A DNA stretch of 6,822 bases, from contig JAEOUK010000370.1 in assembly GCA_016839385.1 (NCBI GenBank), positions 1 through 6,822 of the forward strand, given 5' to 3'. Below the pieces are notes generated by a model. The model was not told where the DNA came from. It did no database searches and worked only from the letters and a program-made list of their open reading frames with translations. The stretch comes from Promethearchaeota archaeon. GTDB lineage: Archaea > Asgardarchaeota > Lokiarchaeia > Sigynarchaeales > MK-D1. Numbering within the stretch: the stretch's first letter is position 1; every line of letters begins with the position of its first letter. Both the position numbers and the translations under genes were made by a program. This document shows, in pieces, positions 3,650 to 6,822 of the stretch.

Positions 3650-4909
3650 ATGCAACCCGATCACCCCTCGAAAGATATAATTGGATCTGATTCTAAAGAG
3701 CTACAAGGAAAAACTATCTGTTTATGTCTTACGGGTAGTGTGGCTGTATCAAATGCACCGGTTTTATCTCGCCAGTTAATGAGATTAGGTGCTGAAGTTT
3801 ATTGCGTGATGAGTAAAGCTGCATCGGAGTTGATTCACCCAAATTTATTGCAGTGGGCTACTGGTAATGAAGTGGTCACCGAATTAACGGGAAATATTGA
3901 GCATATAGTACTGGCAGGAGAACGACCCGGTAAATTCGGAAAAGCTGACCTTATCCTAGTATCTCCAGCAACAGCAAACACTATATCAAAAATCGCTTGT
4001 GGAATTGACGACACTCCTGTAACTACTGTGGTTACAACTGCATTTGGTAGTAAAACACCCATAATCATTGTCCCCGCTATGCATGAAAGCATGTATAGTC
4101 ATCCAATAGTACAGAGGAATATTGAGAAGCTACAAAATTTCGGAGTTGAAATTATTTTACCCCGAATAGAAGAGAATAAAGCCAAAATAGCAGATATAGA
4201 AGATATTATAAAAATAGTAATTCAAAAGTTATCCAAACCACAAGATCTTGCTGGATTTTCATTTCTTATTACTGCGGGACCTTCTCGAGAGTACTTAGAT
4301 CCCGTCAGATTTCTCTCAAATCCTTCGACTGGTCGTATGGGAATAGCTCTTACTCAAGAGATATTAAAAAGAGGGGGAAAAGTTACACTAATTTTAGGTA
4401 ATACAACAGTTTCTCCTCCAGAGGAAGTGAATCTTATCAAAGTGGAAACATCTGACGATTATTTAAAAGCAGTAACAACAGAACTTAAAAAGAAGAAGTA
4501 TCAGGTTTTTGTGTCTACTGCCGCAATTTCCGATTTTCGACCAGATAAAAAAATAGTTGATAAAATTAAATCCGAAAACGGTCCGATTTCAGTTAAATTA
4601 ATACCAACACCGAAAATAATAAAAATTGCACGAGAGTTAGATGCAGAACTCATTATAGTAGCGTTTAAAGCAGAATCTAATATATCAAAAGAACAATTAA
4701 TCGAACGTGCCTATTCTCGATTATTGGAATCGAATGTTGATTTGATTGTAGCAAATGATGTGGGGAAAGACAATCGTGGTTTTGAGACTCAGACTAACGA
4801 GCTATATATAATAAACAAGAAGAAAAAAATCATCCATGTCCCATTATCGACCAAAAATCAATGTAGTCTAGAAATTATTAACCAAATAAAGAAACTGATG
4901 AAAATTTAA
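3650..4909 (+). CDS. coaBC: Bifunctional phosphopantothenoylcysteine decarboxylase / phosphopantothenate-cysteine ligase
   Basis: Catalyses two consecutive steps of coenzyme A synthesis: the C-terminal CoaB domain joins 4'-phosphopantothenate to cysteine using a nucleotide (CTP in most studied CoaBC enzymes), and the N-terminal FMN-dependent CoaC domain decarboxylates the product to 4'-phosphopantetheine. At 419 residues it is normal for a fused protein. CoaC part (about 20-195): flavin-binding TGSVAV (28-33), catalytic His85 in EHIVLAG, SPATANTISKIACG, and PAMHESMY (142-149), the archaeal form of the PAMN motif. The archaeal KAKIADIED stretch stands where bacterial enzymes have the flap cysteine. 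CoaB part (about 203-419): TAGPSREYLDPVRF (208-221), SNPSTGRMG, TAAISDFRP (290-298), Lys305 of the KIK motif, and ANDV (368-371). The start is supported by the archaeal HPSK opening (residues 5-8) and a weak AGTGAG ribosome site 4 nt upstream. Co-transcription with ABCE1 is possible, but a separate promoter in the 58-bp gap cannot be excluded. Confidence 0.98.
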   Translation: MQPDHPSKDIIGSDSKELQGKTICLCLTGSVAVSNAPVLSRQLMRLGAEVYCVMSKAASELIHPNLLQWATGNEVVTELTGNIEHIVLAGERPGKFGKADLILVSPATANTISKIACGIDDTPVTTVVTTAFGSKTPIIIVPAMHESMYSHPIVQRNIEKLQNFGVEIILPRIEENKAKIADIEDIIKIVIQKLSKPQDLAGFSFLITAGPSREYLDPVRFLSNPSTGRMGIALTQEILKRGGKVTLILGNTTVSPPEEVNLIKVETSDDYLKAVTTELKKKKYQVFVSTAAISDFRPDKKIVDKIKSENGPISVKLIPTPKIIKIARELDAELIIVAFKAESNISKEQLIERAYSRLLESNVDLIVANDVGKDNRGFETQTNELYIINKKKKIIHVPLSTKNQCSLEIINQIKKLMKI

Positions 4910-5141: not shown

Positions 5142-6822
5142 ATGGTGGAAACAAAAAATAATACTAAAATATCCTCATCAAACTCAACTAAATCATCGAA
5201 TAAGCCTAGAAAACCTAAAAAAATTTCTACAAAAGACAAATCTGGTGATATAAAAGAGGCATCAATTGCGAAATTCATGCGGAAACGGACTCAATTAGTG
5301 GGTTTCGATTACGGAAATTTCAAACACACCCAATATGCAGTGGAATTCATTGATAATGCCTTAGATGCTATAGAGAAATTTCAATGGGATGCAGAAACAA
5401 ATCTAGAACAATTAAAAAACACAACTGCAAGTGCTATTGCAGAATTTGAGCGATTTGATTTAGAAGTTAAATCCATGATAGAGAAAGTAAATAATAATGA
5501 ATCCGATTTAGTCACACCACTCAAAAAACTCTATAAAGCAGTCCCAAATATCATTAACAAGATAAATTTCGTCAATGAAGAAATTCAAAATCTAGTCGGT
5601 ATCAACACGTTCGAAATGGATCCAATAGAAAAAAGCTCGTTAAATGGATCAGTCACTTCATCCAGTTTTCAGCAGAAATATGACGAGTTTTATGCAGAAT
5701 TTCTGGAAATTCAGAAACATTACAATTCAATCATTGAAACGATTGATAATATGGATAAGAATCCTCAATTCATTTTTACACTTGATAAAGAACTTTCACT
5801 TGAAAGCCTTAGTTATCTCTCAAATGGAGTACCACAATCCACTTTTAAACGAAAAATCAACGAATCTTTAAAGAAAAATTTACGCAGATTTATGGAGTCC
5901 AATGAAACGTCTACTTCTTCAAATAGAGAAATTGGAGAACTAGATAAAGATTACGTATCTAATCCTGAATCCCCAGAAGTAGAGGGAATAGGAGAATTGG
6001 AACAAACTGTGGACCTCAAAGCCATCAAACAAGAACTTTCCCTGGATGAGGATTTAGATGATGAAGAAGTTAAAGAACTTCAGAAACTACAGAAAAAAGA
6101 AAAAGATCTTGAAGCAGAATTACAAACATTAGTAGACAATCTAGAGAATTTTGTATCTCCTGTGGTAGATATCGTTGATAATGAACCCATAGTTATCCTC
6201 AAGCTTAGTGAAAATGAAGCTCCAGATGTTTATCGAGAAAGAGGAGATCGATCAGATTCTTACTTATACACAATTGAAGTGTTCGACAACGGTACAGGTA
6301 TGAAACCCGAAGACTTGATGAAATTTGGGAAATATTTAGCTTCAAGTAAAAGTCAAAAATTACGCCAAACTCGGGGAAGCCAAGGATTTGGCTCTCCAAG
6401 TGCATTTAGTGATGCACAAAATACTACCGGACAACCAATTACTGCAATTTCTAAGCATTCCTCTCAATTATATGGAGTATGCTCAGAATTTTACACAACA
6501 GAAAAGAATACAAAGGTATATGTAGTAGATCCCATAGAAATTGAGACCCCATTTATTCATGGGACTTATGTGAAATTGGATTATTTAAACAAAAAATATA
6601 ATCGTGGGTATGTTGACACATATATTGAAAAAACAGCGTTAATGAATTCACATATATCCTTTATATACATCGATCCTTATGGAGACGAACATTTTTACCC
6701 TCGTCGAGTGATTTATTTTCCAAAAGAACCAAAATATGCACTTCCACACCCCAGTTCAATAAAGATTGGTGATTTTCAAGATTTACTTCGTGGGTCTGAT
6801 AACCTTACTGTAAAGGCATTTC
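5142..6822 (+). CDS. top6B: DNA topoisomerase VI subunit B with a large insertion in the ATPase domain (3' end cut)
   Basis: Topoisomerase VI is an A2B2 type IIB enzyme; subunit B binds and hydrolyses ATP to drive strand passage through the break made by subunit A. The first 560 residues are present. After a Ser/Lys-rich tail (about 1-38), FMRKRTQLVGF matches the family's FFRKNxxxxGF opening. The N-box EFIDNALDA (68-76) holds catalytic Glu68 and Mg-binding Asn72. The G1 box is DNGTGM (382-387), and the ATP lid RGSQGFGSPSAF (411-422) is followed by AQNTTGQP (425-432). Then come HGTYVKL, EKTALMNSHISF and HPSSIKIGDFQDLL, matching conserved Top6B stretches. N-box and G1 box are 310 residues apart instead of about 35. 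The start is the first in-frame ATG that precedes the conserved opening. The transducer domain, its ATP-contacting lysine and any downstream top6A gene lie outside. A divergent Top6B-like paralogue with another role is the main alternative. Confidence 0.92.
   Translation, partial: MVETKNNTKISSSNSTKSSNKPRKPKKISTKDKSGDIKEASIAKFMRKRTQLVGFDYGNFKHTQYAVEFIDNALDAIEKFQWDAETNLEQLKNTTASAIAEFERFDLEVKSMIEKVNNNESDLVTPLKKLYKAVPNIINKINFVNEEIQNLVGINTFEMDPIEKSSLNGSVTSSSFQQKYDEFYAEFLEIQKHYNSIIETIDNMDKNPQFIFTLDKELSLESLSYLSNGVPQSTFKRKINESLKKNLRRFMESNETSTSSNREIGELDKDYVSNPESPEVEGIGELEQTVDLKAIKQELSLDEDLDDEEVKELQKLQKKEKDLEAELQTLVDNLENFVSPVVDIVDNEPIVILKLSENEAPDVYRERGDRSDSYLYTIEVFDNGTGMKPEDLMKFGKYLASSKSQKLRQTRGSQGFGSPSAFSDAQNTTGQPITAISKHSSQLYGVCSEFYTTEKNTKVYVVDPIEIETPFIHGTYVKLDYLNKKYNRGYVDTYIEKTALMNSHISFIYIDPYGDEHFYPRRVIYFPKEPKYALPHPSSIKIGDFQDLLRGSDNLTVKAF
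5385..6179 (+). other. Inserted helical and acidic region within Top6B
   Basis: Encodes about residues 82-346, placed between the N-box helix and the strand that leads into the G1 box. By composition it has five parts: a helical Lys/Glu/Asn-rich segment (77-153), a Ser-rich linker (154-173), a second helical segment with aromatic residues (174-255), a Ser/Glu/Pro disordered stretch (256-295), and an acidic start DEDLDDEE followed by a coiled-coil-like heptad region (about 302-343). Codon use looks like the rest of the gene and no stop breaks the frame. It lacks Cys/Ser-start and His-Asn-end intein signatures. I recognise no known domain. Confidence 0.75.

What the first reader, a model, noticed from the sequence alone, without database searches (positions are those of the whole stretch)
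5385..6179. About 265 extra residues split the GHKL ATPase fold of topoisomerase VI subunit B
In the sequence, the N-box E68xxxN72 and the G1 box D382NGTG are 310 residues apart. In characterised Top6B (for example Saccharolobus shibatae, N42 and D76) the gap is about 34. All ATPase motifs on both sides are intact, so the protein is probably active and the insertion must fold out from the nucleotide pocket. The insert has two helical segments, a disordered linker and an acidic coiled-coil end. An arm at this place could sense or control ATP-driven dimer closure, bind a partner, or contact DNA. I know of no described Top6B with such a module.
Basis: partly seen in the sequence, partly recalled or inferred. 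Interest (0 to 1): 0.8.

Follow-up and report, generated by a model that had tools for sequence, protein, structure and literature searches.

The report
Asgard topoisomerase VI with built-in arm
The ATP-using subunit of a DNA-untangling enzyme in Lokiarchaeota-type archaea carries a large, acidic, probably helical arm planted inside its ATP-binding fold; a smaller version of this arm marks a whole class of the enzyme in Asgard archaea, the archaea closest to eukaryotes, for which I found no description.

Summary
Residues 83-346 (5388-6179) of a truncated Top6B gene are inserted between the N-box helix and the next strand; N72-D382 is 310 residues, against 34 in S. shibatae. Relatives on other contigs share the insert, it is under purifying selection, and the ATPase residues are intact, so it is no assembly error. 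The protein belongs to a deep Top6B class ("B2", my label), so far seen only in Asgard archaea: 134 of 227 genomes of the phylum hold it, and all 70 B2 rows measured have a long spacer (99-314, against 36-81 in 27 selected others). Only one small Lokiarchaeal clade has the giant version, made by adding an indel-free 124-residue segment to a shared base. B2 nearly always adjoins its own Top6A and, in Lokiarchaeal-type operons, a third small gene. The insert is strongly acidic with heptad periodicity, so a partner-docking or ATP-gate-control arm is likelier than a DNA-contact arm; this is inferred. My literature searches found no description. Verdict: a new variant of topoisomerase VI.

The parts
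5142..6821 (+). Top6B of the B2 class, first 560 residues; gene runs off the window end (full length about 1200 aa in the nearest relatives)
   Evidence: full-length relatives L001 1199 aa and L002 1204 aa
5343..5369 (+). N-box E68-FIDN72-ALDA (catalytic Glu and Mg-binding Asn)
   Evidence: E and N in 58 of 58 B2 rows
5388..6179 (+). Insert, residues 83-346 (264 aa), between N-box helix and next strand
   Evidence: acidic, pI 4.42; dN/dS 0.09 window vs L001
5388..5759 (+). Segment A, residues 83-206, 124 aa: the second expansion, only in the window clade, no length change in six proteins, heptad periodicity
5760..6056 (+). Segment B, residues 207-305: short motif FxLDxELxLENL seen in most Lokiarchaeal-type B2 aligned, then a linker of variable length (segment 68-99 aa in six proteins)
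6057..6179 (+). Segment C, residues 306-346, 41 aa in six proteins: acidic heptad-patterned stretch, base of the insert; a Pro in it and the E-P that follows it are shared by the B2 class
6183..6206 (+). EPIVILKL, the strand that follows the N-box helix directly in canonical Top6B; E-P invariant in the 60-row alignment
6285..6299 (+). G1 box D382-NGTG
   Evidence: D and G in 58 of 58
6372..6392 (+). G2 box RGSQGFG
   Evidence: 58 of 58 B2 rows; place
6558..6566 (+). G3 box HGT
   Evidence: Thr in 56 of 58 rows, Ser in 1, Asn in 1; place
3650..4909 (+). CoaBC, upstream neighbour (not part of the feature)
   Evidence: TIGR00521
1771..3591 (+). ABCE1/RLI, upstream neighbour (not part of the feature)
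   Evidence: NF009945
3..1712 (-). class I lysyl-tRNA synthetase, cut by the window start (not part of the feature)
   Evidence: TIGR00467

Best explanation
The gene encodes the ATPase subunit of a Lokiarchaeal topoisomerase VI, the only one found in the two nearest genomes. It belongs to a deep, fast-evolved Asgard class of Top6B (B2) whose GHKL domain carries an insert between the N-box helix and the following strand. SHOWN by sequence: (1) the base of the insert (an invariant Trp at its start, a nearly invariant Pro near its end, and E-P at the following strand) is common to the class; (2) one small clade has an added 124-residue indel-free segment, placed once on the tree, giving the 264-residue insert; (3) ATPase, transducer and Top6A cleavage residues are kept; (4) B2 sits next to its own Top6A and, in Lokiarchaeal-type genomes, a third small gene. 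INFERRED: the amphipathic segments fold as a helical, acidic arm projecting from the GHKL domain. The ATP cycle goes on as in Topo VI (ATP binding closes the Top6B gate on the second DNA, Top6A cuts the first), while the arm docks a protein (the third operon product, Top6A, or the opposite Top6B) and so tunes gate closing. Likelihood: identity, class and two-step growth about 0.95; helical arm about 0.8; docking or gate control rather than a passive spacer or DNA contact about 0.5.
For: Class and spacing: B2 versus other Top6B separated at SH-aLRT 100 in 97 rows (96 different), with N-box to G1 distances 99-314 in 70 of 70 B2 rows and 36-81 in 27 of 27 selected others; the split is 100/100 in a careful 46-row tree. 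Two-step growth: window clade of 7 rows, support 100, distance 283-314; the nearest rows have 177-181. Segment A is present in the six window-clade proteins aligned and absent from the 22 other B2 rows aligned. Selection: whole-insert dN/dS 0.09 and 0.13, core 0.02 and 0.03, in the two pairs of three computable for each; segment A 124 aa in six of six proteins with 36 of 124 positions invariant. Acidic in six of six. Activity kept; Top6A Toprim and N domains in L001; catalytic Tyr in 52 of 52 B2-linked Top6A examined, 50 by pattern and the other two by alignment. Sole Topo VI: one PF09239 match in G001 and in G002 and one Top6A each. Third gene: 71 of 227 genomes, handles G001, G002 and G086-G162 only, directly after Top6A in 19 of 55 B2-Top6A loci.
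Against: No structure could be predicted, so helices and the direction of the arm are not shown. The third gene occurs with Lokiarchaeal B2 of several lengths, not only with segment A, some copies are broken, and G084/G085 have long B2 without it; nothing ties it physically to the insert. The insert evolves several times faster than the core and its linker varies, which also fits weak constraint. It matches no family beyond sub-cut-off coil-type hits (best Pfam GAS, E 0.0043, 16.9 bits against a cut-off of 32.3; best PDB sequence E 0.064). One B2 locus (L080, G214) has no Top6A within the 12 kb fetched.
Confidence: 0.5

Rival explanations
1. Passive elongation. A loop at the domain surface tolerates insertions, the class gained residues by drift, and the arm has no task beyond not disturbing the fold.
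For: The insert diverges faster than the core (segment A 57% versus 87% mean identity); length varies widely within the class (99-314); L001's Top6B is also enlarged in at least three other places (100, 55 and 76 residues, plus a 167-residue tail), as if the whole protein swelled.
Against: Segment A (124 aa) and segment C (41 aa) have no length change in six proteins that are only 52-72% identical in A; dN/dS of the whole insert 0.09 and 0.13; heptad periodicity stronger than shuffles in A and C.
Confidence: 0.3
2. DNA-contact arm, like the coiled-coil CC1 insertion of MORC2, that holds the captured or the gate DNA.
For: MORC2 CC1 is a helical insertion in a GHKL ATPase module, contributes to DNA binding and is hinged near the dimer interface (passages of PMC5811534). 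One stretch of this insert, 216-264, has net charge +4 to +5 in 35-residue windows.
Against: CC1 is predominantly basic, with 24 positive residues; this insert is acidic as a whole in six of six proteins, pI 4.2-4.6. The Topo VI DNA contacts described in PMC5922973 are elsewhere (passages).
Confidence: 0.1
3. B2 is not a topoisomerase any more but a regulatory GHKL ATPase or Spo11-like breaking complex with its Top6A.
For: Very long branch to canonical Top6B (2.4-2.6 plus 0.9-1.3 changes per site); fails TIGR01052's cut-off (248.6 against 380.7); the basic KGRR loop is only partly kept.
Against: ATPase residues and the switch lysine kept; W and Y of WKxY in 58 of 58; Top6A cleavage and Toprim motifs kept; in G001 and G002 it is the only Top6B and Top6A found; passes NF003218.
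Confidence: 0.07
4. Assembly error, intein or other mobile insertion.
For: Only the size and the narrow distribution of segment A.
Against: Same insert in records from different contigs; purifying selection; no known domain in the insert; a search with L001's residues 75-352 among proteins of 660-2100 aa gave five hits, all this Top6B by sequence; no relative confirmed in viral contigs.
Confidence: 0.01

Closest known systems
Topoisomerase VI subunit B of Saccharolobus shibatae (2zbk, 1mu5 and others) and Methanosarcina mazei (2q2e)
   Same: GHKL motifs, transducer, switch lysine, WKxY, partner Top6A
   Different: No insert after the N-box; chains of 469-621 aa instead of about 1200; deep split from S. 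shibatae in the tree (M. mazei was not in the trees)
Eukaryotic Top6B with its extra alpha-helical region beside the GHKL domain (PMC11302465, section 12 read)
   Same: Helical addition at the GHKL domain of a Top6B; eukaryotic Topo VI also has lineage-specific partner proteins, RHL1 and BIN4 (passages)
   Different: I recall, but did not test, that the plant addition lies after the strand, in the hairpin. By eye, Asgard canonical Top6B L095, L099, L022, L109 and L110 show an addition there, not before the strand as in B2; no eukaryotic sequence was compared
MORC2 with coiled-coil insertion CC1 (PMC5811534, passages read)
   Same: A projecting helical insertion within a GHKL ATPase module that closes as an ATP-dependent dimer
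   Different: CC1 is in the transducer-like domain, basic and DNA-binding; here the insert is inside the Bergerat fold and acidic; MORC is not a topoisomerase
Asgard Top6B as sampled in PMC9348778 (passages and section 11 read)
   Same: Same enzyme in the same group of archaea, with lineage-specific extensions reported
   Different: The section read reports C-terminal extensions and says nothing of an insert in the GHKL domain or of two Asgard classes; its supplements were not seen

Membership tests
DNA topoisomerase VI subunit B | GHKL N-box, G1, G2, G3 residues | tested here: met
   E, N, D, G, G in 58 of 58; G3 Thr in 56 of 58 (Ser 1, Asn 1)
DNA topoisomerase VI subunit B | Transducer domain PF09239 with switch lysine | tested here: met
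   L001 853-1006, E 3e-27; K in 57 of 58, one gap. The window itself ends before this domain
DNA topoisomerase VI subunit B | H2TH domain between GHKL and transducer | tested here: inconclusive
   L001 aligns to solved Top6B to residue 579 and, weakly, again at 739-781; no structure
DNA topoisomerase VI subunit B | DNA-contact elements WKxY and basic KGRR loop | tested here: inconclusive
   W and Y 58 of 58, K or R between in 58 of 58; at the KGRR place one basic column is kept in 53 of 58 and others in about half of the rows
DNA topoisomerase VI subunit B | NCBIfam equivalog cut-offs | tested here: inconclusive
   L001: NF003218 305.4 over 274 met; TIGR01052 248.6 under 380.7 not met
DNA topoisomerase VI subunit B | Partner Top6A with catalytic Tyr and Toprim | tested here: met
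   Downstream Top6A in L001 and L002; found in 53 of 62 B2 loci; of the 9 without, 8 are cut or end soon after B2, L080 has none in 12 kb. Tyr in 52 of 52
DNA topoisomerase VI subunit B | ATP-dependent strand passage | not testable with these tools
   needs protein
Meiotic Topo VIB-like | degenerate GHKL, no N-box, no H2TH (PMC11302465) | tested here: not met
   N-box intact
Topo VIII / Mini-A | mostly homodimeric relatives, mainly on mobile elements (PMC8185306 passages) | tested here: not met
   A and B are separate genes among housekeeping genes in L001 and L002; no viral relative confirmed
MORC | CC1 in the transducer-like domain, CW zinc finger | tested here: not met
   insert lies between N-box and G1; no CW domain among the Pfam hits of L001

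The most novel reading that the evidence does not exclude
Lokiarchaeal archaea run their chromosomes with a three-subunit topoisomerase VI (B2, its own Top6A, and the small operon protein), in which an acidic arm grown out of the ATPase fold docks a partner and licenses closure of the ATP gate. This would be a partner-controlled Topo VI that evolved apart from the plant Topo VI-RHL1-BIN4 complex, and the window clade would have lengthened the arm to a new reach.
Probability: 0.2. Interest if true: 0.75.

Novelty: new variant of a known kind. Interest (0 to 1): 0.52.

Why it matters
[quoted passage not shown] A deep, widespread Asgard class of the ATPase subunit, altered inside the ATP-binding fold yet with its catalytic residues kept, is a natural experiment on how the gate can be regulated. 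It gives a defined segment (124 or 264 residues) to delete and a candidate partner gene to test. It also warns that Top6B trees that mix Asgard classes mix very unlike proteins.

Tried and rejected
Looked for the window's own genome: none held. Insert alone against Pfam, PHROGs and PDB sequences: only sub-cut-off or chance-level hits; NCBIfam gave the L002 protein two far-below-cut-off hits, NF045487 (21.6 of 300 bits, residues 625-722) and NF041378 (20.2 of 1300 bits, residues 15-328, over the insert), which I read as coil-type noise. Internal duplication as origin of segment A: best self-match E 0.79; four two-copy DNA repeats of 16-27 nt, read as chance. Foreign composition: none. RNA features: no tRNA, no Rfam match. 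Viral relatives of B2: none confirmed among 43 pattern matches; plasmids: three haloarchaeal records with canonical Top6B at about 30% identity. B2 outside Asgard archaea was not searched beyond these and the large protein set, where the named hits among the 120 listed of 270 are Asgard. Ancient paralogy versus fast evolution of B2: the B2-linked Top6A cluster with Top6A beside canonical-type B in L022, L097 and L099 (support 100, quick tree), and a tree joining B2 with the canonical B of that group is not rejected (p-AU 0.35). I therefore prefer a fast-evolved derivative over an older duplication, but the long branch leaves this open. My first regular expressions for the spacing missed part of the rows and those for G3, PPTD and the switch lysine gave many misses; the counts used come from the corrected cuts and the alignment. 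L003 and L004 were dropped from the tree and residue counts because they are truncated copies of L001 and L002; the 58-row residue count also leaves out 4 of 62 B2 loci with short frames (L052, L069, L072, L089). 'Lokiarchaeal-type' and 'Thor-type' are my labels from record titles, protein names and the tree; the tool names no kinship for G handles. Structure prediction, fold search and any model of the arm could not be made.

Full report
WHAT IS IN THE WINDOW. The window carries a cut class I lysyl-tRNA synthetase, ABCE1, CoaBC and, at 5142-6821 (+), the first 560 residues of a topoisomerase VI B subunit that runs off the end. The nearest named relatives are Candidatus Lokiarchaeota metagenome contigs: L001 (83% identity) and L002 (78%). 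They keep ABCE1 and CoaBC upstream and give the whole operon: Top6B 1199/1204 aa, Top6A 398/399 aa, a 188-aa open frame, then a small GTPase-like gene (the names ABCE1, CoaBC and GTPase in these two loci are my reading of the sequences; Top6A by Pfam in L001).

THE INSERT IS REAL. N72 and D382 are 310 residues apart; the S. shibatae pair N42/D76 is 34 apart (alignments). The extra stretch is residues 83-346 (5388-6179). In an alignment with S. shibatae, L001 has 248 extra residues after S. shibatae residue 47 and 24 more after residue 64. So nearly all of it lies between the N-box helix and the next strand (EPIVILKL), with a small addition in the following hairpin. Records from several contigs share it. 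Between window, L001 and L002 the whole insert has dN/dS 0.09 and 0.13 in the two pairs of three where it could be computed, against 0.02 and 0.03 in the core. dS is near 2 or saturated, so these values are rough.

IT IS A CLASS TRAIT, NOT AN ODDITY. I fetched 60 of the strong loci and 20 other Top6B loci. In a tree of 97 Top6B with the insert cut out, the strong class (B2, 70 rows: 62 loci, the window, 7 database proteins) is one side of a branch with support 100. All 70 have N-box to G1 distances of 99-314; the 27 others that I chose, S. shibatae included, have 36-81. A careful tree of 46 of these rows agrees, 100/100. Some genomes, Thor-type by my label, hold both classes (for example three PF09239 matches in G181 and G194), while G001 and G002 have a single Top6B and a single Top6A.

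HOW THE ARM GREW. Aligning the stretch in 28 B2 rows (one of 29 chosen, L053, gave no cut) shows a shared base: a Trp closing the N-box helix and, before the next strand, a stretch with a conserved Pro followed by E-P (invariant W78, E344, P345 and nearly invariant L210, P336 of L001 in the 60-row alignment). Most Lokiarchaeal-type B2 rows add a motif like FxLDxELxLENL and an acidic linker. Only the window clade (window, P0002, L001, L002/P0122, P0123-P0125; support 100) has, right after the Trp, segment A of 124 residues (six of these seven aligned; tree). The nearest rows have distances of 177-181. A search with L001's residues 75-352, limited to proteins of 660-2100 aa, found five clustered proteins; P0003 and, in part, P0004 came from the earlier search. 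By sequence all are this Top6B.

ANATOMY. In six proteins segment A is 124 aa and segment C 41 aa without exception, while the part between varies from 68 to 99 aa. The whole insert is acidic (net -16 to -31, pI 4.2-4.6). In the window protein the heptad contrast exceeds nearly all shuffles in A (0-14 of 1000 shuffles reach it for windows starting at 83-125; 2 of 1000 at 174-208) and in C (4-7 of 1000 at 307-348), but not in most of the linker; one linker window, 237-271, also does (1 of 1000). Overlapping windows, no correction. Helices are thus likely, not shown. Segment A has 36 of 124 invariant positions, mean identity 0.57; C 0.76; the following core 0.87.

IS THE ENZYME ALIVE? In 58 full-length B2 proteins the equivalents of E38, N42, D76, G80 and G106 are invariant, G3 Thr is in 56, the switch lysine K427 in 57 (one gap), and W and Y of WKxY in 58; the basic KGRR loop is only partly kept. 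The downstream Top6A of L001 has N and Toprim domains; the catalytic Tyr is in 52 of 52 B2-linked Top6A (50 by pattern, two by alignment). L001 passes NF003218 but not TIGR01052. So B2 is a divergent Top6B, and in G001 and G002 the only one found (both are metagenome assemblies whose completeness I was not told).

OPERON. Of 62 B2 loci, 53 have Top6A next door, gap -14 to 161 bp; in 8 the contig or fetched stretch ends in or soon after B2; in one, L080 (G214), no Top6A was found in 12 kb (one search lists 55 because L003 and L004 repeat L001 and L002). A third open frame follows Top6A in 19 of these 55, all Lokiarchaeal-type. In 227 genomes it was found in 71 at E 5e-14 or better, all within handles G001, G002 and G086-G162, plus two weak hits in G006 and G206. 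A search of the large protein set gave 16 relatives, hypothetical or without a name. Several copies are broken by stops (G114, G120-G122, G124, G146) or short (G092, G126), so it is not strictly required.

MECHANISM. Established for Topo VI (passages of PMC5922973): ATP closes the Top6B gate, the KGRR loop senses the captured DNA, and WKxY and H2TH hold the cut DNA. The insert leaves the ATPase and most of this in place. My preferred reading is a helical acidic arm that docks a protein and tunes gate closing; the third gene product, Top6A and the opposite Top6B are candidates. For: constant segment lengths, purifying selection, acidity, a conserved base at the N-box helix. Against: no structure, faster evolution than the core, and no sequence link to a partner. 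A passive spacer remains a serious rival.

COMPARISON WITH WHAT IS KNOWN. Eukaryotic Top6B has an extra helical region beside the GHKL domain that may touch the opposite subunit (PMC11302465, section 12). MORC2 has the CC1 coiled coil in its ATPase module, basic and DNA-binding (PMC5811534 passages). The Asgard work I read reports C-terminal extensions (PMC9348778 passages and section 11). Passages of PMC8185306 list one type IIB enzyme for Ca. Prometheoarchaeum. Of PMC12395588 and PMC12188315 I saw passages only; they do not touch the insert. Searches listed no paper whose title or abstract start concerns an insert in Asgard Top6B (one search listed 12 of 53); most subscription papers and most bioRxiv preprints are not in that library, and no supplements were read.

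VERDICT. Observation confirmed; interpretation partly supported; a new variant of a known kind. The surprise lies less in one odd insert than in a widespread, apparently undescribed Asgard class of Topo VI ATPase subunit with an elaborated ATPase fold.

Noticed in passing
   Followed up: partly
L002:9817-10383 (+), L001:8478-9044 (+): Third gene of the Lokiarchaeal-type Topo VI operon, about 188 aa, no confident family (SHOCT match at its end below the cut-off), found in 71 of 227 genomes, handles G001, G002 and G086-G162.
   Followed up: partly
L074-L079, L081, L083-L086, L088, L090, L092, L093: Top6A partners of B2 in these 15 loci (Thor-type by my label) are 658-950 aa, against 386-425 aa in the Lokiarchaeal-type loci: large additions of unknown kind.
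   Followed up: no
L001:3676-7275: Its Top6B is enlarged elsewhere too: about 100 and 55 residues after S. shibatae residues 278 and 282, 76 after residue 331, and a 167-residue tail whose end looks like a winged helix (winged helix is my reading).
   Followed up: no
L097 (G178): A 2282-aa canonical-type Top6B flanked on both sides by Top6A-like genes; by eye it also has a short insert before the strand as well as in the hairpin.
   Followed up: no
G181-G226: Many of these genomes hold two to four Top6B genes, canonical and B2; the canonical copies examined in L104-L107, L113 and L114 have a Top6A beside them.
   Followed up: partly
L080 (G214): A complete B2 gene with no recognisable Top6A in the 12 kb fetched.
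   Followed up: no
G001: No GyrB C-terminal domain match in G001 (2.5 Mb, a MAG), while G002, G090, G087 and G010 have one each; may be incompleteness.
   Followed up: no
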